A stretch of 64,000 bases of DNA from a virus, in IMG/VR virus record IMGVR_UViG_3300040801_003693, positions 62,001 to 126,000 of that record, one strand, 5' to 3'. Position numbers and translations under genes: made by a program. The notes under the pieces were generated by a model, which saw nothing but the letters and a program-made list of their open reading frames with translations, ran no database searches and was not told the origin of the DNA. Within the stretch, counting starts at the first letter, position 1; each line of letters starts with the position of its first letter. Of this stretch, positions 1 through 44,048 are shown one piece after another.

Positions 1-3000
1 TATCTCTCCGGAGGAGGCAAGTATGTTTTTAATAGCACTCCAGCTATCTACTCCTAATGCTTGTTGTAAATCGTCAGTAGATACTGTTGCTCTAAGTTTA
101 CTGCCCTGATAACCTTTAACTGCACGATCTACAAAACCCTGTCGCATTCCACTGGAACCTCCGAATTCAGGGTTTGCATAATAGTAATCACTGTAAGCAC
201 CTTCTAACTGCATCAGCATTACAGAAGGACCATAGCGTTGAGAAGAACCTAAGAATCCTCTTACGGCAGAAGCATGAGTATCTATACTTAATAATGTAGC
301 TCTAAGTAATTCTGCTCCTACACCGTCATAGGTATCTTCTTCTCTAATTCCAAATTCAGTTGCTACTTGTTTTCTGATTGCTTCTAATTCTAAGGATAAC
401 TCCGCACTTAATACAGGTGCTATCCTATCTGCATATAATGCACCTAAAGAATATTTAGTAAAGTTGAAATTATTTCTATATCCATCTGCTAATCCACCTT
501 GAATATCTTTAACGTATAATTGTCTTAATTGATCTACAGTTTTAACCGTAGTTGTCTGACCCACGTTAGAAAATCTATTTGTATAAACCCCACTAAAATT
601 ATCAACAATATCTTGATAACTTTGAGATAAATCTCTTAAAGGTCTAGAACCAATTACGTTTTTAATTCTTTGTGGAATTTGAGATGCTTTCTTTTTTTGG
701 TCAAAGTAGAATTGCATTACAATTCCATCTTCTCCAGATAAGCTTTCCAACTGTTCTCTATAATCATCTGTTGTTTGTCTAGCAAAGTCGTCTCCTAAAA
801 AAGCAATAGTTTTAAAATAACTCTCTGCTTCTTCTACTCTTAATATTGCTCCTACGTGAGCATCCTCTATAATTTTTAAAGAGGTAACATCTCCTGTTTT
901 CTCATGCTTGTGATAAGGAAGCATATTATTTAAACCAAACTTAATACCTTCAAAATAATTTGATGTTTCTCTACTACCACCTCCTTCTGCAACTGCCATA
1001 TAAAGCAATTCACCCGTACCCAAATCTGAAGTAGCTCCAAAAGAAGCGGGAGTATTCATTAATGCAAATTTATTTAACGCTCCTACTCCTTCATATCCCG
1101 CTGTATTAATTACGTTAACAGTATCGTATCTTCTATCGTTAACTCCATATGCAGGTCTTTTTCTTCTTGCTTGCATTTTAGAATAAGTATTTGCCTGCCC
1201 GTATAACAAGAACGATTCAAACTTCTCTGTAGATAAATTCTTAATCGTTTTATTTAAATCTCTATTATATAAATAATCTTTTTGAGCAGAAACAAAATCA
1301 AATCTTACGTCTGCAAATGTATCGTCATCTCTACTCAATAATGTATTTAATCTGCCAATAATAGAATCTTCTGCCGATAAGTTAGCACCACCTAATAATA
1401 ATGCTTTACGAATGTCTACGTTATCCGTAGAAGCATAAGCTTTTATCTTATTAGTAATCTCTAATAATTCTGATAATCTACTTGTGTCCCCCGGCTTGAC
1501 ATTAGTTAAATTACGAATAGTTTGAGAAACATCTCCACTATCTTGTTTGTACTTAGCTTCAAACTGTGCTAATCCTAACAGCACTCTTTCTTTATCTATA
1601 CTAAGTAAACTGTTAATGTCTCCTGTAGAATCAAATATTCTATTTAAGTAATTAACGCTACCTGTAATTAAATTGTCATAGCTTTCCGTATTGACAGTGC
1701 TGTATCGTGTTACAAATTCATTCTTAGGAAATCTTACCAAGTTTAAATTAGCAGATTCAGATGCAACAGAAGCGATTAAAGATAGCGTGCTTTCTATAGG
1801 AGATAATGTTTCTCTTTGTCCTCTTCTAATTAAAACTTTATTTCCATTACGTTCAAAACCAGTAGCTATATCGCTGTTGGACATATTTACAAATTCTGTT
1901 TCACTGATTAATTTAGATTTGTTTATCTCTAATACAAAACCTTCACCTGCTCCAGAACCTGAAGATAAAGTTGTAAATTTATATTTTAATTGACTACCTC
2001 CGCCTTGGGAGTTACCTATGCTATAAGGATCTATTGTTAATGATAATGCTATAGGACCTTTCTCATCATACTCAAATCCTACTCCCATATTTATCTTAGT
2101 CATTTCTTCTAATGACTTAAGACGGTCGTGTAGTTGAACCAATCGTTTGCGGTCTACACTTCCTTGCCATTCCCCTCCCGTTACATCTTGATATTGTAAT
2201 TGTCCTACACGACCGGGAGTTGTATCGGATTCCATAATATGAAAGTTACGCGCAAACTTACCCATCTCTTCAGTTTCTTGATTTGCATTTAATCCATAAC
2301 CCATTCCTCCCGTGGAAGCTTGTTCATTACTTAAATCTCTAAGTTTCTGTCTTCCAAAAAGCATATCCATTTCATAGTTAACTGTTTCTCTCTCAAACAA
2401 GGAGTCTTCCATTGCTAAAGAATAAAGTCCCATGTTAGAACTTCCTTGCTTCCCAGCTAAGTAACCACTATTATCACTAAGTAAAAATCCTTTTACGTGT
2501 TGTCTGGGTACAGATGCTGTTTTGATATTTCCAGACTGCATTGCAAGTAGCTGTAATGCCATCGATTTATCTAATCCATGCCCCTCTAAAACCGAACCCA
2601 ATCTACTAATTTTATCTTCTGTACTTCCGCTACCCGATGCATCTTTTACAAGCTTGGATAAATCAAACCCATTGCTTTCTCCTAACAATCCTACAGTTCT
2701 TAACTTTCCATAAATAGGATCTAATACTTTTTCTTTATAGTTTCTAATATCAACTATTGCTGAAGCCCTTCCTTCTACTACAGCAGTTAAGAACTGATAC
2801 TGCATCTTTTGATATACTTCTGCCTTCGCACTTAAACTACGTTCGTTGGTACTTAGATAAGCAGCATCATGCTTACCCATCTCCCCGGCTTGAACTCCAC
2901 TAAATAAACTCTTTTCATATTGCAGTAAGAACACCTGGTCAAGAATCATTGACATTTTAGCTTTGTTTGTTCTACCCGCACCACTATCTAAATATTGCAA

Positions 3001-4299
3001 AGAGTTACGTAAATGTTCCATTGTTTCTACTGAACTTCCCACGTTATTCATTCCCGTAGAAAGAAATTTACTTTCTCCTCCAAATGTTCTTTGCATCACT
3101 TTACGTGCTTGAAGATACATTAAACTCTCTGCATCTACTTCACTAGTTTCTCTCTCTCCGGCATCAAGCTGTCTTGCTAATTCATCCGGAGCAATCCCAC
3201 TCATCTTATACTCAAGAACGCGCATGGTTTCATAGTTACTACCCGCTTGATATACCGACTGTCCAATTGGATTCGTTAAGTTTTGTGTTCCTATTACTGC
3301 AAATCTTTCGTTCAGTAAAAACTTAGGGTGGGATTTTTTATCCGCTAGCATCAAGTTAATATCTACTTCTTCCCCAAACTGGTCTTTCAATCTTTGCAGC
3401 TTGTTGAAGAATCCTAAGTTAGGTCCTAAAATATCAAAAGTCTTTAAATCAAAAGACTCGTCTGTAGGCATTGCTAACCTAACATTAAACTTAAATTTAT
3501 CTGGAAGCTCTCCTCGTGCGATCGCCTCTCTTCTGTCTTTGACTCTTTCTAATATATTTGCTACGTAATAATCTTGTAGCTTTTTCGACTGCAACTGGAA
3601 TATGTCTATGAAGAATTCTTTATCAGCATCCGCAAGCATTGCAGCCGCAGGTAATATACCCGGTCTATTTACGTAGTCTACATTTGATAACAATTTCTTT
3701 GCTCTACCCAAACTATTACTTTGAGTAACGTCATCAATCATTGAAGCGGTATTGAAAGACTCCTCTTGGAAACGGCGGAAGTCTCTTCTCATGTCCGCAC
3801 TACTTTTAACTGCATCAAACTTTATTTCCCTATCTGCTACAAAGTCTGCCTGTGCTTTTATATCCTGATAGTAAGGAATTAAATTACTATTCTTTACTGA
3901 ATTACCTGTCATATAACGAACTAAGTCCGTTGCAATATCTGACTGAAATTTACTGTCTAATTCTTCTTTACCAAATAAGCTTACATCAAAATCTTTGAAT
4001 AATCTTTTATAGAATGAAGTACTATCTTGATTATTCTCTGCGATTGCCCTACTAAAATTACTGCTGATACGATACATATAAGCGGACTGCACGCTCTCCT
4101 GTGCCGCCCGCTCATCTCTAGCTTTACGTTCTGCTAACTGCTTATATTCACTAGCAACAAACCCTTTATAGGTATCTTCAATGGTATCTAAATCTTTATT
4201 TTCCTCCTCGGAGAAAAGAAGATGGAATCTAGATACCTCTACTAAATTATTGTTTTGATAGTTACCTTGGTCGTCACTAGCGAATATCTTTCCAAACAT
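1..4299 (-). CDS. Very large protein of unknown function (3' end cut by window edge)
   Basis: An uninterrupted reverse-strand frame runs from an ATG at 4299 to base 1, giving 1433 residues with no stop, so the true C-terminus lies outside. The protein begins MFGKIFASDDQGNYQNN and is mostly charged and helical-looking, with long Gln/Glu/Lys/Arg-rich stretches and no obvious signal peptide or membrane helix. I recognise no catalytic motif. A weak AGGAG lies about 25 bases upstream, too far to decide the start. It points away from the capsid/tail genes that start at 6.7 kb. Its size and phage context make a virion or injected protein possible, but that is inference; a tape measure is less likely because no transmembrane segments are visible. 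Confidence 0.8.
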   Translation of the reverse strand, partial: MFGKIFASDDQGNYQNNNLVEVSRFHLLFSEEENKDLDTIEDTYKGFVASEYKQLAERKARDERAAQESVQSAYMYRISSNFSRAIAENNQDSTSFYKRLFKDFDVSLFGKEELDSKFQSDIATDLVRYMTGNSVKNSNLIPYYQDIKAQADFVADREIKFDAVKSSADMRRDFRRFQEESFNTASMIDDVTQSNSLGRAKKLLSNVDYVNRPGILPAAAMLADADKEFFIDIFQLQSKKLQDYYVANILERVKDRREAIARGELPDKFKFNVRLAMPTDESFDLKTFDILGPNLGFFNKLQRLKDQFGEEVDINLMLADKKSHPKFLLNERFAVIGTQNLTNPIGQSVYQAGSNYETMRVLEYKMSGIAPDELARQLDAGERETSEVDAESLMYLQARKVMQRTFGGESKFLSTGMNNVGSSVETMEHLRNSLQYLDSGAGRTNKAKMSMILDQVFLLQYEKSLFSGVQAGEMGKHDAAYLSTNERSLSAKAEVYQKMQYQFLTAVVEGRASAIVDIRNYKEKVLDPIYGKLRTVGLLGESNGFDLSKLVKDASGSGSTEDKISRLGSVLEGHGLDKSMALQLLAMQSGNIKTASVPRQHVKGFLLSDNSGYLAGKQGSSNMGLYSLAMEDSLFERETVNYEMDMLFGRQKLRDLSNEQASTGGMGYGLNANQETEEMGKFARNFHIMESDTTPGRVGQLQYQDVTGGEWQGSVDRKRLVQLHDRLKSLEEMTKINMGVGFEYDEKGPIALSLTIDPYSIGNSQGGGSQLKYKFTTLSSGSGAGEGFVLEINKSKLISETEFVNMSNSDIATGFERNGNKVLIRRGQRETLSPIESTLSLIASVASESANLNLVRFPKNEFVTRYSTVNTESYDNLITGSVNYLNRIFDSTGDINSLLSIDKERVLLGLAQFEAKYKQDSGDVSQTIRNLTNVKPGDTSRLSELLEITNKIKAYASTDNVDIRKALLLGGANLSAEDSIIGRLNTLLSRDDDTFADVRFDFVSAQKDYLYNRDLNKTIKNLSTEKFESFLLYGQANTYSKMQARRKRPAYGVNDRRYDTVNVINTAGYEGVGALNKFALMNTPASFGATSDLGTGELLYMAVAEGGGSRETSNYFEGIKFGLNNMLPYHKHEKTGDVTSLKIIEDAHVGAILRVEEAESYFKTIAFLGDDFARQTTDDYREQLESLSGEDGIVMQFYFDQKKKASQIPQRIKNVIGSRPLRDLSQSYQDIVDNFSGVYTNRFSNVGQTTTVKTVDQLRQLYVKDIQGGLADGYRNNFNFTKYSLGALYADRIAPVLSAELSLELEAIRKQVATEFGIREEDTYDGVGAELLRATLLSIDTHASAVRGFLGSSQRYGPSVMLMQLEGAYSDYYYANPEFGGSSGMRQGFVDRAVKGYQGSKLRATVSTDDLQQALGVDSWSAIKNILASSGEI

Positions 4300-4819: not shown

Positions 4820-5755
4820 ATGATAACCACAACTACAGTACAAAGTCAAGAACCTCAACCACAAAATCAGTTCCAAGTAGTTGCTCATGGGCTGTATAAT
4901 TCTTGGAAGTTTGTTGCTTCGGGAGATGAGGATAGAAAGTTAAAAGCAAGAAAAGAAGTAGCGAATACGCTTGAAGTAAGTAGCCGTGATATAAGCAGAT
5001 CCATTTCTGTAAAAGACTTCTACGAAGGAATTCCACTACAGCACTATTGGGATTTGCCAATAGATACAATATTATCGATTGCTAAAGAAAAATATTTAAT
5101 CCTCCGCGATAATCTAATGCAAATGCCTCACAACAAGGTTAGTATAGAGGCTCTACAGAAGATGGTGGATGAAAATGTTAAAGCATCTAAACCTCCCAAG
5201 GAACCAAGAAAAACCTTCAGTTGGAAGCGCGATCGCTATAACAATCGCAGAGCCATAATAGAACTACCTGATTGCGATACAGCAAGAGAACTAGAAGCGG
5301 ATTTAAAAGATAGCTGCCTGCCCGTACCAACCTACATTAAATCTTTGTTTGAGAAAAAAGAAAGATGCGAGAAGGCGGAACAAGTCCTTAAGGAGAAAGA
5401 AGCCGCAGTAGCAAAGTTAGAAGAATTAATTAAGCAGGAACCACAGCCATCGGTAGCATATGATATCTCAGAGAACAATAGCTCGGTTGCTGAGATTCCT
5501 ATACTTGATAGAAAGAATAGGTATGTACCCCTGGTTGAAGTGTATAAAAACGAAAGTCAAAGAATGAAACAGCACTGCAAGGAAGTATTCAAAAAATATT
5601 GTGATGCAAAGTGTAAATTAAGTGCTGCGATTGCTGAAATCAAAAAAATGAAGGCTGAAATAAAAGCAGCTATGGGTAGTATATTTATCAATTCGGGTTC
5701 TTCAGAAATCCCCGTGTCTTTAGACCGGGGAAGCTTAAAAAAAACAACTAGCTAG
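4820..5755 (+). CDS. Coiled-coil protein with hairpin leader, paralogue of the 39202-40317 gene
   Basis: 311 residues, starting MITTTTVQSQEPQ. The region LSIAKEKYLILRDNLM and the later stretch IIELPDCDTARELEADLKD followed by a Lys/Glu-rich helix (about residues 175-215) match the same segments of the protein at 39202-40317 (NLHKEKYLCIREKLL and ITIPCEDTAMQLQSRLNE). A second coiled coil covers the C-terminal 70 residues. A Lys/Arg-rich patch (SWKRDRYNNRR) near residue 135 could bind nucleic acid. The family is not one I recognise; the shared hairpin leader and plasmid-like look suggest a regulatory, partition or DNA-binding role, which is inference. It carries a HIP1 octamer at 5229. Its end overlaps the convergent gene at 5748 by 8 bases. 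Confidence 0.75.
   Translation: MITTTTVQSQEPQPQNQFQVVAHGLYNSWKFVASGDEDRKLKARKEVANTLEVSSRDISRSISVKDFYEGIPLQHYWDLPIDTILSIAKEKYLILRDNLMQMPHNKVSIEALQKMVDENVKASKPPKEPRKTFSWKRDRYNNRRAIIELPDCDTARELEADLKDSCLPVPTYIKSLFEKKERCEKAEQVLKEKEAAVAKLEELIKQEPQPSVAYDISENNSSVAEIPILDRKNRYVPLVEVYKNESQRMKQHCKEVFKKYCDAKCKLSAAIAEIKKMKAEIKAAMGSIFINSGSSEIPVSLDRGSLKKTTS
5710..5730. terminator. Hairpin at convergent gene ends
   Basis: CCCCGTGTC, TTTA loop, GACCGGGG form a stem with one bulged T. It lies inside the end of the forward gene and 18 bases beyond the stop of the reverse gene at 5748. No good T-run follows on either side, so it is only a weak terminator candidate. Confidence 0.3.
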
Positions 5756-6035
5756 CTGCAACTAAATCATAAAAAGCAACTACAATTCCGTCATATACAG
5801 AATTACCGCCAGACACTTCAACGTTAATTAGCTGCCACTTTACCTCTGGTTTGTCTAAAGAAGAAACTGTTTGGTATCTTTCTTTGACCAATTCAAGAGC
5901 TTGAGTACTTTTAAGTGAGACTGTGAACACAGGTAAAATATTGTCGTCACTTCTCCCTGGCAAAGGAAGAAAAACACACAAGCTTCCGATTTCAATTTCT
6001 AACATTTCTTTTAGATTTATTTTTTCAATGTACAT
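5748..6035 (-). CDS. Putative partner (immunity-like) protein of effector pair 1
   Basis: 95 residues from the ATG at 6035. An ATG at 6039-6041 is also in frame, but AAAGGAG lies one base from it and about seven from the 6035 ATG, so the second ATG is better spaced. The gene overlaps the end of the effector gene at 6017 by 19 bases, indicating translational coupling. The C-terminal segment VKWQLINVEVSGGNSVYDG aligns with CEWEIVQTYILEGGDSCYKK of the partner at 43123, and an N-terminal LPLP motif is shared with other partners. No signal peptide, so probably cytoplasmic. Role as cognate partner or immunity protein is inferred from pairing. Confidence 0.65.
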   Translation of the reverse strand: MYIEKINLKEMLEIEIGSLCVFLPLPGRSDDNILPVFTVSLKSTQALELVKERYQTVSSLDKPEVKWQLINVEVSGGNSVYDGIVVAFYDLVAAS

Positions 6036-6418
6036 TGCCATACTCCTTTTTTCTTGAATACCTTAATTTTTGATTTTGGTGGATATCCTAATTTAAATGC
6101 ACATTCTCTTAATGCAGCTTTCCAAGACTTTGCATTAAGCGGATAAATAGCACCTAAATCTTCTTGCTTCGGGTCTTCTAAATAATCACCATCTTCTATT
6201 TTTCTTACTATCCCTTTAATATTCGCAAAATATTTCTTCTTGGTTTGCCGATGGTACCAGACGTAAGAAGTTACACCACCGACAATAGTTGTACCTACCA
6301 ATACGCAAACTTTTGCACAAATAAGCGGTGCAATTACAATCGGTACTGCCTCAACCTTGCGAGGTGCATTTAGACTAGCTGCTAATCCAACAGCTACAAT
6401 TCTTGGTATTATTTTCAT
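6017..6418 (-). CDS. Secreted/membrane effector-like protein, pair 1
   Basis: 133 residues. The N-terminus MKIIPRIVAVGLAASL followed by NAPRKVEA looks like a signal peptide with a VEA-type cleavage site. A second hydrophobic segment (about residues 25-52) carries the motif CAKVCVLVGTT..GG that is almost identical in the 31318 protein and similar in the 42771 protein. The C-terminal domain starts KKKYFAN and has two cysteines in a pattern shared by all five family members: A..EC in a helix and G-V-W-Q-C in the last strand. Pairing with a small soluble gene suggests a toxin/immunity or exclusion module. I know no named family for it. Confidence 0.7.
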   Translation of the reverse strand: MKIIPRIVAVGLAASLNAPRKVEAVPIVIAPLICAKVCVLVGTTIVGGVTSYVWYHRQTKKKYFANIKGIVRKIEDGDYLEDPKQEDLGAIYPLNAKSWKAALRECAFKLGYPPKSKIKVFKKKGVWQCTLKK

Positions 6419-6672: not shown

Positions 6673-7044
6673 ATGTTTGAAATTAGTCTCCCTTCAAAAA
6701 AGAAAGTTCAATTTTCTGCTCCAACATTTAATGATCGAAGATTGATGCTGAAGAATTACGACCGTGCTGAAGGATATTTGCCAGAAGATTTATTAGCAGC
6801 AAAGTGTCTGACTCACGTGAATGAATCTCCTGTACAGCAAGATTGGGAAACAGAACCAATCAATAGATTTAATGGTTGGTCTTTAAAGGATCAAGCTTAT
6901 TACTTAGAAGTATTTATGAATATGTTTTCTTTGGATGAGAAAACTAAAGAAGCTGCTGCTCAAGAAGCAAAAAAGTTAATGGGTATGACTGGTACGCCGA
7001 AACCATCTCAAGTAGCTACTCGAAGTTCTGGCAGCGTAAGTTAA
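6673..7044 (+). CDS. Tail-assembly-chaperone / T4 gp26-like baseplate-assembly protein (frame 0 product)
   Basis: 123 residues: MFEISLPSKKKVQFSAPTF, then a charged helical body with DLLAAKCLTHVN, YYLEVFMNMFSLDEKT and KEAAAQEAKKLMG. This is the layout of small tail/baseplate assembly proteins of T4-like and related phages (recognised from memory, not searched). The upstream A+T-rich leader has no clear Shine-Dalgarno. At codons 100-101 it carries the heptamer A AAA AAG, and the -1 frame downstream stays open for 170 codons, so this gene probably encodes both a short product and a longer frameshift fusion, as tail chaperone genes commonly do. The portal gene follows. Confidence 0.7.
   Translation: MFEISLPSKKKVQFSAPTFNDRRLMLKNYDRAEGYLPEDLLAAKCLTHVNESPVQQDWETEPINRFNGWSLKDQAYYLEVFMNMFSLDEKTKEAAAQEAKKLMGMTGTPKPSQVATRSSGSVS
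6969..6975 (+). promoter_or_regulatory. Slippery heptamer A AAA AAG for -1 ribosomal frameshifting
   Basis: In the frame of the 6673 gene the codons read GCA AAA AAG, so the heptamer A-AAA-AAG is correctly phased for a -1 slip. The -1 frame opens at 6948, just upstream, and continues to 7487. This heptamer is the classic efficient bacterial slippery sequence (as in dnaX). Confidence 0.75.
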
Positions 7045-7487
7045 TCACAAAGTTTTTTACTGCTTCAATAGTTGCTCCTTATTTAGATAAGTTTACTAGT
7101 ATCATCCCTGAATATATAGATAGAGCAGGATATTGGAATTCTACTTTTCATTACGAACTTAAATTAAATAATCCTTCTTTCCCTGACCCAGAATTATATT
7201 CTCAAAAGAAATGGTTTGTTCAAGCAGTTGCTAAAAACATCCGGGATTTATCTCAAATAGATAAATGGGTGAGCATTGCTACTGTGACTAATATGACTCT
7301 TGATGAATTTCTAAATATGGATGAATTCTGGCAAGAGGCAGTATTTAGTGCTGTACAGGAACACGTTGAGTATCAAAATAAAGAACAGAAGAAATCATTT
7401 GAAGACATGACTAAAAGGATTGAAGATTTAAAACCACATTCTAGTTCTTTGAGTGGAGTATCTAAACCTTCTTTTGTTATGAGTTAA
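6975..7487 (+). CDS. -1 frame extension of the tail-assembly-chaperone-like gene
   Basis: After the slip the next codon is GTT at 6975 and translation runs 170 residues: VNGYDWYAETISSSYSKFWQ, then KLITKFFTASIVAPYLDKF and on to a TAA at 7485-7487. The fusion would be about 271 residues. The sequence is protein-like throughout (aromatic-rich, then a charged helix KEQKKSFEDMTKRIEDLK). No ATG with a ribosome-binding site lies near its beginning; a GTG at 7269 would give only the last 72 residues. The long open frame without a start and the phased slippery site are the main evidence for frameshift expression. Confidence 0.7.
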   Translation, partial: VNGYDWYAETISSSYSKFWQRKLITKFFTASIVAPYLDKFTSIIPEYIDRAGYWNSTFHYELKLNNPSFPDPELYSQKKWFVQAVAKNIRDLSQIDKWVSIATVTNMTLDEFLNMDEFWQEAVFSAVQEHVEYQNKEQKKSFEDMTKRIEDLKPHSSSLSGVSKPSFVMS

Positions 7488-7517
7488 CAACAATTATCAA
7501 TAAGCAAGTACTAACTG

Positions 7518-7552
7518 TTTATTGATAATTGTTTATTGTTTATTGATAATTG
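7518..7552. repeat. Short A+T repeats before the portal gene
   Basis: TATTGATAATTG occurs twice around two copies of TTTATTG directly upstream of the portal ATG. Similar TTATTG/TTATTAG strings occur at 14330-14390 and 17938-18054, also in front of structural or nuclease genes. They resemble the short A+T-rich repeats common between cyanobacterial genes. Confidence 0.5.
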
Positions 7553-7556
7553 TACC

Positions 7557-9092
7557 ATGCCCGATTTGCACCCTACTGAAGGTAATATTTCTACCTTACC
7601 TACATCTCCCCCTGTAGCGACAACAGCAGTATATAGAAAGCGACCTTTGATAGGTTCACAATTAGGAATGGCTACTAGTTATTCTCCCTCCGGAGAAGGA
7701 TTTGTATTAACAAGGAAGCCTTCTTACTATCAGCTATCAGTATGGGATGAAGCTAGAAGAAAAGAGCCTGTAATTAAACAGGGTATAGAATATATAGTTC
7801 AATCTTTACTAGCTAAGATTGGTTCTTATTCTCATCCTGATAAAAAGATTGATGCTTTTGTTCAGGCTAATATTGTTACCAGCTTACCTTTATGGGTTAA
7901 AGATATTGCCGAATCAATGCTTTGGTCTGGGTTTGGGGTATCAGAAATTAATTGGGTACAAAAGAAAGGTCCAGGTCTTATTCCTCAGATATGGGTTGAT
8001 AGTTTAATTAATTACCATCCTTTACAAATTTATTTAGAACCTAATGATTATGGTTTGATAAAGGATGGAGAGAAGATTACTAACTGTGCTTATAAATCAG
8101 GAATTTGGGTTCCCGCTCCTCCGGCTCATATTAATGTTAAATCTCGACGTTCCAAGAAACGAGAATATAATGGCAATTTAGTTAGATTACCACTGAGCAA
8201 AAGAATATACATGACTCTTGGTGGAGAGGGGAATAATATTTATGGTCGAAGTATTTTAGAATCTATTATCTCTTATCACTTTTTTAAAGAAGCTTTTAGA
8301 GATATGTTAACTACAGCATTAGATAGATATGGTACTCCACTAATCTATGCTATAGTTCCTCCTATGAATACCGATAAGGAGGTTATAAATCCTGACGGTA
8401 GTTCTCGTGAGATGACTTTGCATGAACTGACCGCAGAGGAATTAAAAAATCTTTCTTCTGAATCGGCTTTAGTATTCACTCAAATATCTAAAGATCAGCC
8501 TATTAAATTAGAAGCTTTAACTACCGGAAATAATTTCAGTACTGCGTTTACCGATGCGATGGAGATGTGTGACTATAATATGCAGATGGGCATTGGTATC
8601 CCTAATTTGCTTATGAAAGATAACAGTTCTAAACTTGGTTCTGGTGGTGCTAGTGAAAAGCAATTAGAACTTTATGATACGTTTATCTCTTCACTATTCG
8701 ATTTAATTGTAGCACCTTTTATTAAACAACTTTGCTCTCAATTAATTCAATATAACTTTGATGCTAGAACTAATCCCCTTGCTTATGACTGTGGTATTGT
8801 ACAGAAGAAACCTACTAAAACTACTGAACTAAAAGTTGTAGTTGGTGCAGTAGAGTCTTTGACCCGTATGGGTTACATCAATCCTTTTAACTCTTTAGAC
8901 TTTCATTACGTGAGAGATTTGATTGGATTACCTGCACGAGATCCTGATAAATTTAATGTTCTTCCAGATAACAAACAAGAGCGTACTAATATTAATAAAG
9001 AAGATATTAATACTGATGCTCCTACAGAAGAAGAAAAGCGGCTAATTGAAGTGGCTGCTTACCAAAGATACGTTAACCAAAATAATAGTTAA
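7557..9092 (+). CDS. Phage portal protein (DUF935/Mu gp29-like)
   Basis: 511 residues from ATG 7557 (MPDLHPTEGN); a TTG at 7536 is in frame but lies in the repeat leader. Features of the Mu-type portal family include VKQGIEYIVQSLLAKIG-like helices, SMLWSGFGVSEINWV, the central MTLGGEGNNIYGRSILESI motif and IGIPNLLMKDNSSKLGSG with the helix KQLELYDTFISSLFDLIVAP. The protein forms the dodecameric ring at the capsid vertex through which DNA enters and leaves. It precedes the protease/scaffold and capsid genes, with an accessory block between. A CTCCGGAG palindrome lies in frame (7688-7695), encoding SPSGEG. Confidence 0.85.
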   Translation: MPDLHPTEGNISTLPTSPPVATTAVYRKRPLIGSQLGMATSYSPSGEGFVLTRKPSYYQLSVWDEARRKEPVIKQGIEYIVQSLLAKIGSYSHPDKKIDAFVQANIVTSLPLWVKDIAESMLWSGFGVSEINWVQKKGPGLIPQIWVDSLINYHPLQIYLEPNDYGLIKDGEKITNCAYKSGIWVPAPPAHINVKSRRSKKREYNGNLVRLPLSKRIYMTLGGEGNNIYGRSILESIISYHFFKEAFRDMLTTALDRYGTPLIYAIVPPMNTDKEVINPDGSSREMTLHELTAEELKNLSSESALVFTQISKDQPIKLEALTTGNNFSTAFTDAMEMCDYNMQMGIGIPNLLMKDNSSKLGSGGASEKQLELYDTFISSLFDLIVAPFIKQLCSQLIQYNFDARTNPLAYDCGIVQKKPTKTTELKVVVGAVESLTRMGYINPFNSLDFHYVRDLIGLPARDPDKFNVLPDNKQERTNINKEDINTDAPTEEEKRLIEVAAYQRYVNQNNS

Positions 9093-9821: not shown

Positions 9822-10127
9822 TTAATCGTATACTTCAGGATGTAACGGTTTGTAATAATCTAGAAACACCTTTTTATAAGCTCCTTCTGGATTACAAATT
9901 AAACTTCCTTGATAAATCCATTTTCTATTTTCATCCTCCTCATAATTAGCTTCGTATACTGTTTTTTTCTCCATGAGTGTTGTATGCACTTCAATTTCTA
10001 TTTCTTCTGAATACATACTACTTCCATTTAAAAACACATCTGGACAGTCGGGTAAAGCGAGTGCGATGGATATCGTAGGAGGAATTTCCTCACCCCAGCT
10101 TTGTTTAATCAAATTAGTTATTTGCAT
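9822..10127 (-). CDS. Putative partner (immunity-like) protein of effector pair 2
   Basis: 101 residues from ATG 10127, two bases after the stop of the effector gene at 10130. Contains SWGEEIPPTISIALALPDCP and ends AYKKVFLDYYKPLHPEVYD. That tail is nearly the same as YKKVILNYYKPLHPEYYE in the partner at 43123, and EIYKPINPEL occurs in the 30995 protein. This shared tail defines a partner family at different loci. Acidic and without signal peptide, so cytoplasmic. Immunity function is inferred from pairing alone. Confidence 0.7.
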   Translation of the reverse strand: MQITNLIKQSWGEEIPPTISIALALPDCPDVFLNGSSMYSEEIEIEVHTTLMEKKTVYEANYEEDENRKWIYQGSLICNPEGAYKKVFLDYYKPLHPEVYD

Positions 10128-10129
10128 GA

Positions 10130-10585
10130 TTAATCTAGTAAAGCGTCTATGTCTAACTCTTGAGAAACATCAATGAAATCACATTGATATTTTCCTTTTC
10201 TTATTTTTGTAACTTGTACTATTGTTCCGGGTGGTTTTATTTTATCGCATTCTCTTTTCGCTTTTATTGCGCTAGACGCATTAACTATTTTATAGTTATG
10301 TCCTCCGCTCCCACTTTTAATTATTCTATTTAAGCTTGTGACTTTCTTACCGTTTATGCGTAACAAATAGTTAACCTGATTTTCCTTGTTATAAGTTTGA
10401 TAGTATTTTATCCCTCCTATCATTACTATTCCTAATACTACACAAGCAGGTAATTGAGGACCACTACAAAAAGGAGCAAAAGGAGCTAGAGCAGCTCCCC
10501 CTTTTGCTGTCGGCGTGTTGATGGTTAATGTGATACCTGTACTGAGAATAGCGATCGCACGGGTACAGATGAGAGAAAGCTTCAC
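10130..10585 (-). CDS. Secreted/membrane effector-like protein, pair 2
   Basis: 151 residues from a GTG at 10585, with AAGG about eight bases upstream (TTAAGGTTTTATAGTG). N-terminal signal-like segment (MKLSLICTRAIAILSTGITL), then a second hydrophobic stretch with cysteines (FCSGP.LPACVVLGIVMIGGI, about residues 37-58). The C-terminal domain has the family pattern: A..K-R-E-C-D in a helix, then VQVTKIRKGKYQCDF. The partner gene follows after 2 bases. A HIP1 octamer lies near the start (10552). Same architecture as the 6017 protein, but diverged. Confidence 0.65.
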   Translation of the reverse strand: MKLSLICTRAIAILSTGITLTINTPTAKGGAALAPFAPFCSGPQLPACVVLGIVMIGGIKYYQTYNKENQVNYLLRINGKKVTSLNRIIKSGSGGHNYKIVNASSAIKAKRECDKIKPPGTIVQVTKIRKGKYQCDFIDVSQELDIDALLD

Positions 10586-10691
10586 TATAAAACCTTAATT
10601 TCTTTTTTCATAAAATTTATACCATGACATACATTTAACTGCAAAACTATTTATTTTTATAATTGGGATAGATAAGGTATAGATACTGAAA

Positions 10692-10744
10692 GCAAGCAGG
10701 GGCAAACATATTGCGGAATATAAGCCCCATCTAATTTTGCTTGC
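10692..10744. promoter_or_regulatory. Inverted repeats upstream of the 10811 gene
   Basis: GCAAGC (10692-10697) pairs with GCTTGC (10739-10744), and inside it GGGGC (10699-10703) pairs with GCCCC (10724-10728). The structure lies in the 180-base divergent gap between pair 2 and the forward effector gene. It may be a shared operator or leader; the function is not known. Confidence 0.4.
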
Positions 10745-10810
10745 AGTTGTATAAAATTCTATCGTATGATATTAGTTGTATTAAGTTCTACTATAAAGAG
10801 AGTACGGTAC

Positions 10811-11281
10811 GTGAGTTTAAAGCAGTCTATAGCAGCAAGTTTAGGTTTGGCACTTGCGATAAATGCATCAAGCGTATTTATAAAAGTGGATGATACATCA
10901 AATTCTTCCCCAATCTCTTTCTCCGGGGAGAAAGCAAACGGTGCAGTATTAACTCTTACTGCTTTATGTGCAGTGGGCTGTAAACTAATTGGTGGAGCAG
11001 TTATTGTAGTAGCAGGAAAAGCAATTGAAACTGTAGTATACAAGGCTACTAAAGGGGGTCTTTATTACATAAAGAATCCGACTAGTAGTAAAAAGAATCA
11101 ATATGTTCAGGCTATTTATTATGTCAATTATGGTTCAATAAAAGCAGGGAGTTTGTTGGAAGCAGTTGAAGAATGTAAAAAATTAGCAAGGGAAAGAGGA
11201 GTTCAGTATCGTATGGTTGTAGATAGAAATAAAGCGGGGCGGTCGGATGGTAGGTATGACTGCATGGGAGCTTGGGAATAA
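10811..11281 (+). CDS. Secreted/membrane effector-like protein, locus 3
   Basis: 156 residues from GTG 10811 (MSLKQSIAASLGLALAINAS, a signal-peptide-like start with GAGAG about eight bases upstream). An ATG at 10766 would add 15 residues that disrupt the signal-like N-terminus. A second hydrophobic segment (TLTALCAVGCKLIGGAVIVV) carries cysteines as in the other members. The C-terminal domain has A-V-E-E-C-K-K in a helix and ends DGRYDCMGAWE, matching the shared two-cysteine pattern. A CTCCGGGGAG palindrome (10921-10930) is read in frame as FSGEK. The next gene starts one base after its stop. Confidence 0.6.
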   Translation: MSLKQSIAASLGLALAINASSVFIKVDDTSNSSPISFSGEKANGAVLTLTALCAVGCKLIGGAVIVVAGKAIETVVYKATKGGLYYIKNPTSSKKNQYVQAIYYVNYGSIKAGSLLEAVEECKKLARERGVQYRMVVDRNKAGRSDGRYDCMGAWE

Positions 11282-11282
11282 A

Positions 11283-11669
11283 ATGAATGCGAATAGAATT
11301 GAAGATTGCATAAGAGCTTATATAAATGGAAAGCCTTTTGAACTTATTGTTTATCAGAAAAAGGATAGAATTAATCATGCATTAACAGTAGACTTAAGCC
11401 ATTTCTCTAAATCAATGCAGGGTGTTCCAGAACGAACTCTTTCTTCTTATCTAAAAAAAGAATTTGCTAAAGGAGAATTATTTGAAAATAAAAATAATGT
11501 TTTTCCTTACCTAATTTTCTTAACCCAATTAGATAAAATTCCTACTGTTCTTAACTACACTGTAGGAGTCAATAGCTTTCAGTTAATTAATGATTCAAAA
11601 GTTAATCCCTATTTAACTCAACGTTATCGCAATGCAAAGTATAATATAGCGGTTAACTTTTATTTGTAA
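11283..11669 (+). CDS. Putative partner protein of locus 3 (second partner family)
   Basis: 128 residues from ATG 11283, directly after the TAA of the effector gene, with GGGAA before it. Longer starts at 11247 or 11256 would overlap the upstream gene. Sequence: MNANRIEDCIRAYINGKPFE, then LKKEFAKGELFENKNNVFPY and a Tyr-rich end. It is related to the protein at 43644 (LKQNLKSGK...NPKNIFPYLIIISKK; both end in a 'VNF' strand). So locus 3 carries a different partner family from pairs 1, 2, 4 and 5, but that family also follows pair 5. Confidence 0.6.
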   Translation: MNANRIEDCIRAYINGKPFELIVYQKKDRINHALTVDLSHFSKSMQGVPERTLSSYLKKEFAKGELFENKNNVFPYLIFLTQLDKIPTVLNYTVGVNSFQLINDSKVNPYLTQRYRNAKYNIAVNFYL

Positions 11670-30787: not shown

Positions 30788-30824
30788 GTTTCAATCCCTG
30801 ATAGGGATTAGAATTAATTTCCAC
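30788..30824 (-). CRISPR. Solitary CRISPR-repeat-like unit (single copy, no array)
   Basis: On the reverse strand a 37-base unit starts GTGGAAATTAATTC, has the palindromic core AATCCCT-ATC-AGGGATT and ends ATTGAAAC. The hairpin core and the 8-base ATTGAAAC end are hallmarks of cyanobacterial type I/III CRISPR repeats (a very similar core occurs in Anabaena repeats, from memory). I found no second copy in the window. The 38 bases between its ATTGAAAC end and the ATG at 30749 equal a spacer in length. Solitary repeats in phages are known as mini-arrays or RNA-based anti-CRISPRs. Confidence 0.65.
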
Positions 30825-31008: not shown

Positions 31009-31321
31009 TTTTTTCAAAGTACCTCATCTTATAAATCAACATAACCAAAGATGGAAGTTCTGGATTTATTGGTTTATAAATCTCAAAGTCCTGGTAATCC
31101 CATATATGATTAGGATTACCTTGACAGCCTACAGTGTAAGCGTGCAAAAACTTATAGCCTTTAATTTTCTTTTGACTACTTAGGTATTTTTTGACTGCTT
31201 CTTCCGGACTTATTTCGCAGCACAAACGTGGTGTTGTAGGAAGACTAAAGTATGAATTAGTTTCAGGACAGGCGGTTAGCATAAAAATAGTTTTTACGCC
31301 TTCTAAAATTTCTGATTTCAT
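30995..31321 (-). CDS. Putative partner (immunity-like) protein of effector pair 4
   Basis: 108 residues from ATG 31321, overlapping the end of the effector gene at 31318 by four bases (ATGA). Contains TIFMLTACPETNSYF near the N-terminus, GNPNHIWDYQDFEIYKPINP near the C-terminus and several cysteines. EIYKPINPEL matches the YYKPLHPE tail of the partners at 9822 and 43123. Soluble, no signal peptide. Coupled translation and the shared tail support a role as cognate partner. Confidence 0.65.
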   Translation of the reverse strand: MKSEILEGVKTIFMLTACPETNSYFSLPTTPRLCCEISPEEAVKKYLSSQKKIKGYKFLHAYTVGCQGNPNHIWDYQDFEIYKPINPELPSLVMLIYKMRYFEKMMKL

Positions 31322-31710
31322 TTAGCAATACATCTCCAACTTCCATTTGATTTTTGTTCAACACGGACAAATTCTAATCCATGCATATCACTTTCTCTTT
31401 GACATCTTTCTTCTGCTTGTTCTTGGGTTAATTCTTTCCCATATATATTGATAACCTGCTCTTCCTCAAAAGCGTCTGGTTCATCAATCATCTTGCGTAC
31501 ATTACCTTTCTCGTCTGCAAAGTATTTCTTCTTTGCAGTGCGGTTATGCCAAACATAAGAAGTCACTCCACCAATAATAGTAGTGCCCAACAAAACACAA
31601 ACCTTCGCGCAAACCAAAGGCGCAATAACTATCGGCACTGCCTCAACTTTACGAGGCATATTTAAACTAACTGCTAATCCAACAGCCAGCATTTCTGATA
31701 AAATCTTCAT
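31318..31710 (-). CDS. Secreted/membrane effector-like protein, pair 4
   Basis: 130 residues from ATG 31710 (MKILSEMLAVGLAVSL...NMPRKVEA); the frame stays open to an ATG at 31839, but the paralogue at 6017 starts at the equivalent MKI and the extra part covers structured DNA. The segment VEAVPIVIAPLVCAKVCVLL is almost identical to the 6017 protein; after it KKKYFADEKGNVRK also matches. The C-terminal part then diverges (EQVINIYGKELTQEQAEERC) but keeps the two cysteines and ends GSWRCIAK. Strong N-terminal identity with a divergent C-terminal domain is what is seen in polymorphic effectors. Confidence 0.7.
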   Translation of the reverse strand: MKILSEMLAVGLAVSLNMPRKVEAVPIVIAPLVCAKVCVLLGTTIIGGVTSYVWHNRTAKKKYFADEKGNVRKMIDEPDAFEEEQVINIYGKELTQEQAEERCQRESDMHGLEFVRVEQKSNGSWRCIAK

Positions 31711-31742
31711 ATTGAGTAACCCGCCTCTAACGGGTGAAAGAT

Positions 31743-31794
31743 TGCCGCGATAATACCAACGTGTCCAGCGTTGGTTGCGGTATATTTTTTTACC
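31743..31794. repeat. 52-base repeat copy 1 (second copy 42699-42751)
   Basis: Begins TGCCGC, has AGCGTTGGTT in the middle and ends ATATTTTTTTACC, as does the copy in front of effector pair 5. This copy also folds: CCAACG pairs with CGTTGG around TGTCCAG. With the T-run on the forward strand it looks like a terminator. It lies inside the alternative 5' extension of the pair 4 effector gene. Confidence 0.5.
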
Positions 31795-31833
31795 ATTCAA
31801 AATACTTCCACGGCAATCAATATCCGGTTCGTA

Positions 31834-31904
31834 ATTCATCCCAACACTTCTCTTACGGGTAAGTGTGGGACTTCTTACGATTGAAAGTTAAATTTTCATG
31901 GTGC
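31834..31904 (-). repeat. Hairpin element B flanking effector pair 4 (IS200/IS605-end-like)
   Basis: On the reverse strand: CTTTCAATCGTAAGAAGTCC, then ACACTT...AAGTGT hairpin with CCCGT in the loop, then GGGATGAATTAC. Related to element A (30941-31008), same orientation, so the effector/partner pair sits between two imperfect direct repeats. Resembles IS200/IS605 hairpin ends; no transposase is nearby. Confidence 0.5.
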
Positions 31905-33933: not shown

Positions 33934-34312
33934 AGTTTACTTTTAATTCTGTTGATTGAATATCAGTTTAGTACATTCTCTCTCCGGAGAGAAGAGTCGT
34001 ACATTAGCCTTATTGAAAGGTTTATTTTAGGTTGTACAAGGTTCTTGTACAAGGTTTTTAGCACCAGAAAAACTTTTGCAATGATTCTAAGAGATAAGTC
34101 TTATATTTCTTTAATTCATTTATATAAACTCTACAGATGATTATTTTAAGTATATAGTCTTTATTTATTAATATTTTATAACTCTGTATGCCTTATAGTA
34201 TAAGCTTTGCAGCTATTCTCAAGTGTAGTCTATTTCAAGAAGGTTGACTAGTTTATATGTAATAAAGATTGTTATATTGAGTTATAATAATATTAGGAGA
34301 AACTCACGTAGT
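33934..34312. other. 379-base intergenic region before the tube gene
   Basis: Holds a long palindrome, TTCTCTCTCCGGAGAGAAGAG (CTCCGGAG at 33982-33989), two CTTGTACAAG-type palindromes in tandem near 34035-34060, and A+T-rich DNA with TATAGTATAA and TTGACT/TATAAT-like promoter strings before an AGGAGA. A 62-codon forward frame exists here but lacks protein-like composition. Most likely promoter and leader of the tube gene. Confidence 0.5.
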
Positions 34313-34987
34313 ATGCAATTATACCAAGCCCCGGTAAACAATGTGGGACTCGACCCTTTGCAGGGTTTTGATTTCGAGTGTTGGTGTCAAGATGTAGCTT
34401 CTGGAAAAATTGCTTGGTTTGGAAAGTTTCAATCTTTGACGCTTTCTGTACGGGACGCAACGGAAACATATCTAGAATTAGGACAACGTATACCTATTTA
34501 CCTTAATGGTGAAATTCAAGTAGCGTGGGTTTTAGAACAAGGACTTGTTGATATGTCTTTTATTAAGAGAACCTTTGGTGCAGATGAATTATCACGTCAA
34601 CAGTTCATTACTAGAGGACCGCGTTTTCAAGTTACCTTTGATGCGAATGCAGCAGAACTCAATGGAGTTCCTGATAGACCAATAAATAGTACTAATGGTA
34701 ATGTACTCAGACAAGGAACTACAGAATACTCTGTGCTTAAGGATGATTTATTTATCGGGTCTTCAGCACAAAGAGCAAAAGGAAGATACGAATTGTTAAG
34801 ATGTAAAGTAGACTCAGTATCTTTAGGTATCATGCCAGGTCGTCGTGTCGCGGCGGTTCGTTGGGAAGGTGTAGCAGAAGGTTTGAGATTTAGAGAGAAT
34901 CAAACCGTTCAGGAATTTAAGACTACTAGAAATAATGTCGGTAGAAACTTTGGTGGTTTCGATCCCGGTTCTCAAGAAATTGCTTAA
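34313..34987 (+). CDS. Contractile tail tube protein
   Basis: 224 residues from ATG 34313 (MQLYQAPVNNVGLDPLQGFD), with GGAG 12-15 bases upstream. Features: SLTLSVRDATETYLELGQRI near the N-terminus, IQVAWVLEQGLVDMSFIKRT and the C-terminal RYELLRCKVDSVSLGIMPGR. Size and beta-rich composition fit the tube subunit that stacks inside the sheath. It is the first virion gene after the sheath on the forward strand, about 4.5 kb later because of the accessory island. Named by position and composition rather than a unique motif. Confidence 0.6.
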   Translation: MQLYQAPVNNVGLDPLQGFDFECWCQDVASGKIAWFGKFQSLTLSVRDATETYLELGQRIPIYLNGEIQVAWVLEQGLVDMSFIKRTFGADELSRQQFITRGPRFQVTFDANAAELNGVPDRPINSTNGNVLRQGTTEYSVLKDDLFIGSSAQRAKGRYELLRCKVDSVSLGIMPGRRVAAVRWEGVAEGLRFRENQTVQEFKTTRNNVGRNFGGFDPGSQEIA

Positions 34988-34995
34988 TTGAAAAA

Positions 34996-35349
34996 ATGAT
35001 TTTTTCAGTCTTTAAAGTTAATGGTAAGTTTTGTGTTTGTAATACAAGTGGTACTTTTATTTTTAATTTAATTAATAGAAATATTATTAAAGGGGAGAAT
35101 ATTTGCCTCGATTTCGATCGGGTCAAAATATTCTCCGCTGTCTTTTTTAATGCAGCAATAGGTAGATTATTTAAATTTCATTCTTCTGAAGTAATTGAAG
35201 ACCGACTTAGCATTATTAATTTAGATGAGGATGCAATCCGTCTTTTGAATTTAGTTAAAAGAAATTCACAAAGATATTACACCGATGCTGAATATAGAGC
35301 AGCGGTAGATAAAGCCATAAATAATCATATACATGAAACCTCAGAATGA
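34996..35349 (+). CDS. STAS-like protein (DUF4325-like)
   Basis: 117 residues, 8 bases after the tube gene. GENICLDFDRVKIFSAVFFN followed by IGRLFKF and SIINLDEDAIRLLNLVKRNS matches the STAS-like DUF4325 pattern (conserved D-F...F..A..G.L). These small proteins occur with ATPases or as regulators in mobile elements and defence loci. Inside the gene, GGAGAATATTT (35094-35104) and AAATATTCTCC (35126-35136) form an 11-base inverted repeat, a possible operator or RNA hairpin. Confidence 0.65.
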   Translation: MIFSVFKVNGKFCVCNTSGTFIFNLINRNIIKGENICLDFDRVKIFSAVFFNAAIGRLFKFHSSEVIEDRLSIINLDEDAIRLLNLVKRNSQRYYTDAEYRAAVDKAINNHIHETSE

Positions 35350-42770: not shown

Positions 42771-43142
42771 ATGAAATTCATTATATCCTTTTTATGTATG
42801 GCTAGTGTTACGGTTAGTCCTTTTAATTTTGTAAAGAACAATAAAGCAATACCATTGGCGATCGCAGCACCTGTAGTTTGTGCTAAGTACTGCGTGTTAA
42901 TTGGAACAGCAATTCTGGGTGGAAGCACTACTGTATATATATGGCATAACAAAAAGACAAACCAAAGATATATCAGTACTAATAATGGTAATATTATTGA
43001 GAGTAAAGGTGTGTATGCTAAAGATTTAGAGGAGGCTACCAAAAGGTGCTTAAAAATAAAACCCAGAAATAAGAAATTGAAGAATGTTGTCAAAAGAAAA
43101 GATGTAAGTGGTGGATTTTACTATGAATGTGAATATAGATAA
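42771..43142 (+). CDS. Secreted/membrane effector-like protein, pair 5
   Basis: 123 residues. Signal-like N-terminus (MKFIISFLCMASVTVSPFNF), then a second hydrophobic segment with CAKYCVLIGTAILGGSTTVY, matching CAKVCVLVGTTIVGGVTSYV of pair 1. The C-terminal domain has EATKRCLKIKPRNK and ends GGFYYECEYR, fitting the family pattern of a helix cysteine and a last-strand cysteine. HIP1 at 42859. The partner gene overlaps its end by 20 bases. Confidence 0.7.
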   Translation: MKFIISFLCMASVTVSPFNFVKNNKAIPLAIAAPVVCAKYCVLIGTAILGGSTTVYIWHNKKTNQRYISTNNGNIIESKGVYAKDLEEATKRCLKIKPRNKKLKNVVKRKDVSGGFYYECEYR

Positions 43143-43476
43143 GATAGCAGTTGAATGGGGCAAAAACATTCCAGATTATATTTCATTTAATTTGCCCAGT
43201 CCCAAATCTTTTGATGCTGACTTAGAAGCAGGAGGTTGGGGATGGTTAGATAAACAAGAAATATATATCCCGGACGAAAAAGTATTTGAAGCTGGTTTTG
43301 CAAATATTCTATTATGTGAATGGGAAATAGTTCAAACTTATATTCTTGAAGGGGGAGATTCTTGTTACAAGAAAGTAATTTTAAATTATTACAAACCCTT
43401 GCATCCAGAATATTACGAACAGAAATGGAACAAGTTTAAAGAAACGCTCTGTAATACTTTTGAATCTACACAATAA
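43123..43476 (+). CDS. Putative partner (immunity-like) protein of effector pair 5
   Basis: 117 residues from ATG 43123 (MNVNIDKIAVEWGKNIPDYI), inside the end of the effector gene. A start at 43108 is possible but less well placed. The C-terminal part ILEGGDSCYKKVILNYYKPL shares its end with the 9822 partner and GG(D/N)S.Y with the 5748 partner. Acidic, soluble. The overlap shows coupled translation with the effector. Confidence 0.7.
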   Translation: MNVNIDKIAVEWGKNIPDYISFNLPSPKSFDADLEAGGWGWLDKQEIYIPDEKVFEAGFANILLCEWEIVQTYILEGGDSCYKKVILNYYKPLHPEYYEQKWNKFKETLCNTFESTQ

Positions 43477-43505
43477 ATAAATAATCATTACATTATTACC
43501 CTCCT

Positions 43506-43547
43506 GCGAAGTTTGCGACGGGGAGTACTCCCTGTCGCAAACTTCGC
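43506..43547. terminator. Near-perfect 42-base palindrome after pair 5
   Basis: GCGAAGTTTGCGAC (43506-43519) pairs with GTCGCAAACTTCGC (43534-43547); between them GGGAG and CTCCC pair around TA with one G-T wobble. The GC content is far above that of its surroundings. It follows the partner stop by 29 bases, so it may be a terminator; its length also fits a cruciform or recombination site. Confidence 0.6.
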
Positions 43548-43643
43548 GTTTGTTGTACATTTGTGCTGCAACCATTTCTGCAATACATTTTAAATTTTGT
43601 TATAGAATATATGTATAATTTAGTTCAGGCATGAATGTAAAAA

Positions 43644-44048
43644 ATGAGTTCAATACAGTTAGAATCAAAAATAGTTGAATACTTAACGGCAGCACCTTTT
43701 CAATTAATTATTCAAGTTAACAGGTTGGGGATAGATGTTTTAGAAACCAATTCTTTAGATGTAGAAGACAATAAGATGTCAGATATTTGTAAGTTCTACC
43801 TCAAGCAAAATTTGAAAAGTGGAAAATATATTTATGGAGAATATTTTTATAATCCTAAAAATATATTTCCTTACCTGATAATTATTAGTAAGAAAGTTTT
43901 GTTAAGTAATAAAGAGTTTTATTATTTTAATAACGAATTTTTATCTAGAGTCGCTGTTACTTTAGATAACAACAAACAAATTGTTAAAACAGAAACTTAC
44001 AAAAAAGCAGGTAGTTCAGTAACTATCAACTTTGTTGAAATTAAATGA
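43644..44048 (+). CDS. Partner-family protein, relative of the 11283 protein
   Basis: 134 residues from ATG 43644. FQLIIQVNRLGIDVLETNSL, then CKFYLKQNLKSGKYIYGEYF and NPKNIFPYLIIISKKVLL align with FELIVYQKK, LKKEFAKGELFENKNNVFPY and LIFLTQLDK of the 11283 protein; both end in a short 'VNF' strand. In both places it lies downstream of an effector-type gene. No signal peptide. Confidence 0.6.
   Translation: MSSIQLESKIVEYLTAAPFQLIIQVNRLGIDVLETNSLDVEDNKMSDICKFYLKQNLKSGKYIYGEYFYNPKNIFPYLIIISKKVLLSNKEFYYFNNEFLSRVAVTLDNNKQIVKTETYKKAGSSVTINFVEIK

What the first reader, a model, noticed from the sequence alone, without database searches (positions are those of the whole stretch)
6673..7487. Predicted -1 programmed frameshift (A AAA AAG) in the tail-assembly gene
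The heptamer is in phase at codons 100-101 and the -1 frame is open from 6948 to 7487 with protein-like composition and no good start of its own. Tail-chaperone genes of many phages use such frameshifts. The arrangement next to the portal gene rather than before a tape-measure gene is unusual.
Basis: partly seen in the sequence, partly recalled or inferred. Interest (0 to 1): 0.7.

Follow-up and report, generated by a model that had tools for sequence, protein, structure and literature searches.

The report
Frameshifted tail-assembly chaperone gene in cyanophage
A gene of a cyanobacterial virus almost certainly makes a short protein and, when some ribosomes slip back one base, a longer fusion; this is a well-known trick for building phage tails, here found conserved in the Microcystis-phage lineage, where databases list the parts as separate hypothetical genes.

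Summary
In window 6673-7044 the slippery heptamer A AAA AAG (6969-6975) is in phase at codons 100-101. The -1 frame is open 6948-7487, with no ATG/GTG/TTG before 7269. Comparative evidence strongly supports a programmed -1 frameshift. All relatives found (Fukuivirus phages Ma-LMM01 and MaMV-DC, Microcoleus phage My-WqHQDG, ten IMG/VR loci) keep a short ORF followed by a 169-188-codon -1 ORF. The heptamer sits at the same codons in every lineage except one subclade, which keeps a single-tRNA A_AAG site there. The -1 frame is under purifying selection where no start codon could explain it. The short product is predicted to have a tail-assembly-chaperone fold (HK97 chaperone 2OB9 and YqbN 3KLU are among the top matches, with middling scores). 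Best explanation: a lambda G/GT-like chaperone pair (123 aa and 271 aa). It lies between a giant gene and the portal gene, not between tail tube and tape measure. No downstream RNA stimulator is detectable in this phage. It is a new, previously unannotated member of a known kind. The frameshift has not been measured.

The parts
6673..7044 (+). Zero-frame gene (lambda gpG-like short tail-assembly chaperone), 123 aa, 14.0 kDa
   Evidence: ORF; PHROG 32670, unknown function; homologs in 10 phage records and 10 IMG/VR loci; AlphaFold2 mean pLDDT 77, beta-hairpin plus helices, similar to HK97 chaperone 2OB9 and YqbN 3KLU
6969..6975 (+). Slippery heptamer A AAA AAG, codons 100-101
   Evidence: Sequence; same place in L014, Fukuivirus (L002, L003, L015-L020, L022) and L023; reduced to A_AAG in L004/L021
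6948..7487 (+). -1 reading frame, stop to stop; the part translated after the slip, 6975-7484 (170 codons), gives the T-like extension of a 271-aa, 31.8 kDa fusion
7269..7487 (+). 72-codon ORF from an internal GTG: what a gene caller would report for the second frame (compare Ma-LMM01 gp082); judged not an independent gene
   Evidence: conservation extends upstream of this start
7548..9092 (+). Portal protein gene (Mu-type, PF06074) directly downstream
   Evidence: Pfam E=4.9e-20, PHROG 113 portal; coordinates of the part scanned, the ORF may begin at TTG 7536

Best explanation
A tail-assembly-chaperone gene of the lambda G/GT type. Most ribosomes make the 123-aa short protein. A minority slip back one base at A AAA AAG and make a 271-aa fusion ending in a mostly helical extension. 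By analogy with lambda, the short protein and the common N-terminal part coat the tape-measure protein, and the -1-encoded part recruits tail-tube subunits; both would leave before the tail is finished. Shown here: the anatomy, its conservation, selection on the -1 frame where no start codon exists, and a chaperone-like predicted fold of the short protein. Inferred: that slipping happens, at what rate, and the chaperone function.
For: (a) In all 14 loci compared, a short ORF is followed by a -1-frame ORF of 169-188 codons; A AAA AAG is at the same codons in all but the L004/L021 subclade. (b) In L004/L021 the remaining A_AAG at the same codon is the only X_XXN site (L004) or one of two (L021) in the overlap; A_AAG is a documented single-tRNA shift site, and A_AAA_AAG a highly shift-prone site in E. 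coli, used by dnaX (PMC5009743). (c) The -1 frame lacks ATG/GTG/TTG for 57-108 codons past the zero-frame stop in window, L014, LMM01, L015, L019 and L023; the late starts are not conserved. (d) That pre-start segment evolves as protein: dN 0.15 vs dS 0.67-1.6 for L004/L021 vs L023; whole -1 frame dN 0.13 vs dS about 1.0-1.1. (e) GCA AAA AAG has probability 0.04-0.07 per lineage given the peptide. (f) Predicted fold: VIA-align Z 7.2 to YqbN and 5.3 to HK97 chaperone; BFVD hits include T4-like baseplate hub assembly proteins and several annotated tail-assembly chaperones. (g) It lies in the head-tail structural module of a contractile-tailed phage (sheath, PHROG 30392).
Against: No chaperone family in Pfam or NCBIfam matches. 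Profile comparisons with T4 gp26, gp51 and Mu gp41 are not convincing, the best being a 36-column N-terminal match to gp51, E 0.013. Fold-match scores are middling (Foldseek E about 3 to 2OB9). No downstream RNA structure stands out in the window (z +1.3); only part of Fukuivirus shows a modest hairpin (z about -2). The C-terminal extension is modelled poorly (pLDDT 55). The gene is not beside the tail-tube gene, and no tape-measure gene was identified. Window vs L014 alone gives only a mild dN/dS (0.62/0.97) in the pre-start segment.
Confidence: 0.88

Rival explanations
1. Two separate genes: the second begins at an internal start in the -1 frame (as annotated in Ma-LMM01 gp082, from a GTG), perhaps by translational coupling.
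For: GenBank annotations of Ma-LMM01 and MaMV-DH01 show it this way; GTG 7269 exists in the window.
Against: The proposed starts differ in position between lineages and lie 25-108 codons past the zero-frame stop. Conservation and purifying selection extend upstream of them. The long -1 frame would not need to stay open back to just before the slip site.
Confidence: 0.05
2. The shift is made by RNA polymerase slipping on the A run (transcriptional slippage), not by the ribosome.
For: The site is a run of six A, and slippage adding an A would also give the -1 frame.
Against: Six A is short for bacterial polymerase slippage (general knowledge, not tested here). The subclade L004/L021 has only three A there yet keeps the -1 ORF.
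Confidence: 0.04
3. The frameshift is real but the protein is not a tail-assembly chaperone (for example a head-neck or portal-associated factor).
For: Position beside the portal and a gene of unknown function; no sequence match to named chaperone families.
Against: Predicted fold and two-product design match chaperones; the usual place after the tail-tube-like gene holds a DUF4325 STAS-like gene instead.
Confidence: 0.1
4. A sequencing error or decayed gene produced the two frames.
For: None beyond the general risk with metagenome assemblies.
Against: Same arrangement in independently sequenced isolates and contigs, with purifying selection.
Confidence: 0.01

Closest known systems
Phage lambda G/GT tail-assembly chaperones (-1 frameshift)
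   Same: Short ORF with a slip site near its 3' end; long -1 extension without a usable start; proposed low-level fusion; part of the virion-assembly gene module
   Different: A AAA AAG heptamer; no sequence similarity to a named chaperone family detected; lies between a giant gene and the portal gene rather than between tail tube and tape measure
HK97 tail assembly chaperone (PDB 2OB9) and YqbN (PDB 3KLU)
   Same: Predicted fold of the short protein aligns over 82-84 residues (Z 5.3 and 7.2)
   Different: 8-12% identity; middling scores
T4 gp26/gp51 baseplate-hub assembly chaperones
   Same: Myovirus; BFVD fold hits to T4-like hub assembly proteins; weak N-terminal match to gp51
   Different: T4-like phages are reported not to use frameshifting for these (title of Vladimirov et al. 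2022, cited in PMC10885494; PMC5009743 also excepts T4); here one gene with a -1 frameshift
Vandenendeviridae/Andersonviridae chaperone locus (phage Adele, PMC12846349)
   Same: Myovirus chaperone with a conserved -1 shift inferred by the same comparative argument; second part misannotated as a separate hypothetical gene
   Different: GTTTTT slip motif; gene directly upstream of the tape measure

Membership tests
Programmed -1 ribosomal frameshift gene | In-phase X_XXY_YYZ (or X_XXN) site within the frame overlap | tested here: met
   A AAA AAG at 6969-6975; A_AAG in the one deviating subclade
Programmed -1 ribosomal frameshift gene | -1 frame conserved and under purifying selection without its own start | tested here: met
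Programmed -1 ribosomal frameshift gene | Downstream RNA stimulator or upstream Shine-Dalgarno-like stimulator | tested here: inconclusive
   None in window; modest hairpin in LMM01/L015 (z about -2); not a strict requirement
Programmed -1 ribosomal frameshift gene | Fusion protein made | not testable with these tools
   Needs proteomics or a reporter
Tail-assembly chaperone (lambda G/GT type) | Short product has the chaperone fold | tested here: inconclusive
   Chaperone 2OB9 and YqbN are among the best aligned solved structures but Z is 5-7
Tail-assembly chaperone (lambda G/GT type) | Matches a curated chaperone sequence family (supporting, not strictly defining) | tested here: inconclusive
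   No Pfam/NCBIfam hit; PHROG 32670 is unnamed. Chaperones of different phages have low sequence similarity (PMC5009743), so a missing hit does not exclude membership
Tail-assembly chaperone (lambda G/GT type) | Gene between tail-tube and tape-measure genes (usual, not strictly defining) | tested here: not met
   Lies between a giant gene of unknown function (PHROG 31006) and the portal gene; the tail-tube-like gene is about 27 kb away
Tail-assembly chaperone (lambda G/GT type) | Binds tape measure and tail tube, absent from virions | not testable with these tools
   Needs biochemistry

The most novel reading that the evidence does not exclude
A tail-assembly chaperone displaced from the tape-measure locus to the portal/giant-gene locus. 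Its slip site has decayed in one subclade from a two-tRNA heptamer to a single-tRNA A_AAG site while frameshifting is kept, which would make the lineage a natural experiment on how frameshift signals evolve.
Probability: 0.4. Interest if true: 0.45.

Novelty: new member of a known kind. Interest (0 to 1): 0.35.

Why it matters
It gives a likely function and a corrected gene model to two 'hypothetical' genes in Ma-LMM01-type Microcystis phages, and shows that these myoviruses, sometimes called T4-like, use the lambda-type frameshift strategy that T4 is reported not to use. The change from heptamer to A_AAG in one subclade gives a testable case of a reduced slip site. The mechanism itself is well known.

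Tried and rejected
Single-sequence search of viral contigs with the -1 ORF found nothing confirmed. Search of 84,980 bacterial and archaeal species genomes with the alignment, and of plasmids with the protein, found no relative. Rfam found no frameshift element in 6673-7600. Scanning for a downstream stimulator at several spacings gave nothing in the window. The idea that the giant neighbouring gene (2186 + 1467 aa; Ma-LMM01 gp080, 3562 aa) is the tape measure could not be settled: no named family or PDB match, a few hydrophobic stretches near its C-terminus, and by the rule of thumb of about 0.15 nm per residue (from memory) it would be too long for the reported 230-260 nm tail of MaMV-DH01. 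The extension was modelled too poorly to search by fold. Literature searches found no report of this frameshift, but the library lacks most subscription papers.

Full report
WHAT IS THERE. The window is bases 62001-126000 of a 135,938-base IMG/VR virus record. It is a contractile-tailed phage (sheath gene at 27595, Mu-type portal at 7548) distantly related to the Fukuivirus phages of Microcystis (Ma-LMM01, MaMV-DC, MaMV-DH01) and to Microcoleus phage My-WqHQDG. The 123-codon ORF at 6673-7044 carries A AAA AAG in phase at codons 100-101. The -1 frame is open 6948-7487. Slipping there would join residues 1-101 to 170 residues of the -1 frame, a 271-aa, 31.8 kDa fusion against 14.0 kDa for the short product.

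IS IT MORE THAN CHANCE. The heptamer alone is not remarkable: the window's larger ORFs hold 134 in-phase XXXYYYZ sites, and the gene itself has a second A AAA AAG at codon 8. What is remarkable is conservation. Fourteen loci were compared, from four diverged lineages: the window; L014 at 57% identity; the Fukuivirus clade at about 38%; and the Microcoleus-type clade at about 33%. Every one has a short ORF followed by a -1 frame of 169-188 open codons. GCA AAA AAG is present at the equivalent codons in all but L004 and L021, although codon usage gives it only 4-7% among the ways to encode Ala-Lys-Lys. In L004 and L021 the site has become GCA AAG GAG, and its A_AAG is the only X_XXN site in the overlap of L004 and one of two in L021. 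A_AAG is a documented minimal -1 site, and A_AAA_AAG is highly shift-prone in E. coli and used by dnaX (PMC5009743).

NO SEPARATE START. Past the zero-frame stop there is no ATG, GTG or TTG in the -1 frame for 74 codons in the window, 87 in L014, 57-60 in Fukuivirus and 108 in L023; L004 and L021 have a TTG after 25. These starts are not at equivalent positions, yet the protein sequence is conserved upstream of them. In the Microcoleus-type clade the segment that only a frameshift could translate has dN 0.15 against dS 0.67-1.6 (25 codons), and the whole -1 frame dN 0.13 against dS about 1.0-1.1. The window/L014 comparison is milder (0.62/0.97), with synonymous sites near saturation. GenBank lists the second part from an internal GTG in Ma-LMM01 and MaMV-DH01, and not at all in MaMV-DC.

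WHAT THE PROTEIN IS. AlphaFold2 on ten relatives gives the short protein a confident core: a beta hairpin followed by helices (pLDDT 77). Among solved structures the best aligned are YqbN (Z 7.2), a Vibrio PICI protein (Z 6.1) and the HK97 tail assembly chaperone (Z 5.3); Foldseek ranks HK97 second, with a weak E-value. The viral library returns T4-like baseplate hub assembly proteins and several annotated tail assembly chaperones. No curated sequence family matches, and profile comparison with T4 gp51 gives only a short N-terminal match. The extension is predicted mostly helical but at low confidence. The chaperone function is thus likely but not proven.

GENOMIC PLACE. In the loci that reach far enough the gene pair lies beside a giant gene (PHROG 31006 family; divergent in the window, L014 and Fukuivirus, same strand and upstream in the Microcoleus-type clade), with a large gene directly downstream that is the portal in the window. 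In the window an extra gene pair (4820-6418) lies between the giant gene and the chaperone gene. Whether the giant protein is the tape measure is open. The place just after the tail-tube-like gene (34244-34987) holds a DUF4325 STAS-like gene.

STIMULATORS. No RNA structure after the slip site stands out in the window. Ma-LMM01 and L015 have a hairpin with z about -2, which L019 largely lacks. This neither supports nor refutes frameshifting.

VERDICT. A conserved programmed -1 frameshift (confidence about 0.95 for the frameshift; 0.88 for frameshift plus chaperone role). It is ordinary in kind: the same inference was recently made for Vandenendeviridae (PMC12846349). What is new is the lineage, an unusual location, corrected annotation of Microcystis phage genes, and a subclade with a reduced slip site.

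Noticed in passing
window 30788-30824 (-): A solitary CRISPR direct repeat of the cyanobacterial DR5 type (Rfam RF01318) with no array around it, just upstream of a small gene; resembles the solitary repeat units that some phages are reported (from memory) to use as RNA anti-CRISPRs.
   Followed up: partly
G000:C1:55200-66299 (-), i.e. window 1-4299 and upstream (L011:3200-14299): The giant gene near the chaperone gene is split into 2186 and 1467 codons by a single in-frame TGA; the relative L014 reads straight through at that place.
   Followed up: partly
window 5748-6418, 9822-11669, 31318-31839, 42771-44048: Several copies of a diverged cassette of two or three small genes (one with a hydrophobic N-terminal segment) scattered between structural genes, often on the opposite strand; those tested have no significant Pfam match.
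   Followed up: partly
window 58846-59985: A FAD/NAD-dependent oxygenase-like gene inside the tail module; Fukuivirus MaMV-DH01 has a gene annotated lysine/ornithine N-monooxygenase in a similar place.
   Followed up: no
window 34996-35349: A STAS-like DUF4325 protein gene directly after the tail-tube-like gene (Pfam E 3.6e-11), where many phages carry the tail chaperone.
   Followed up: no
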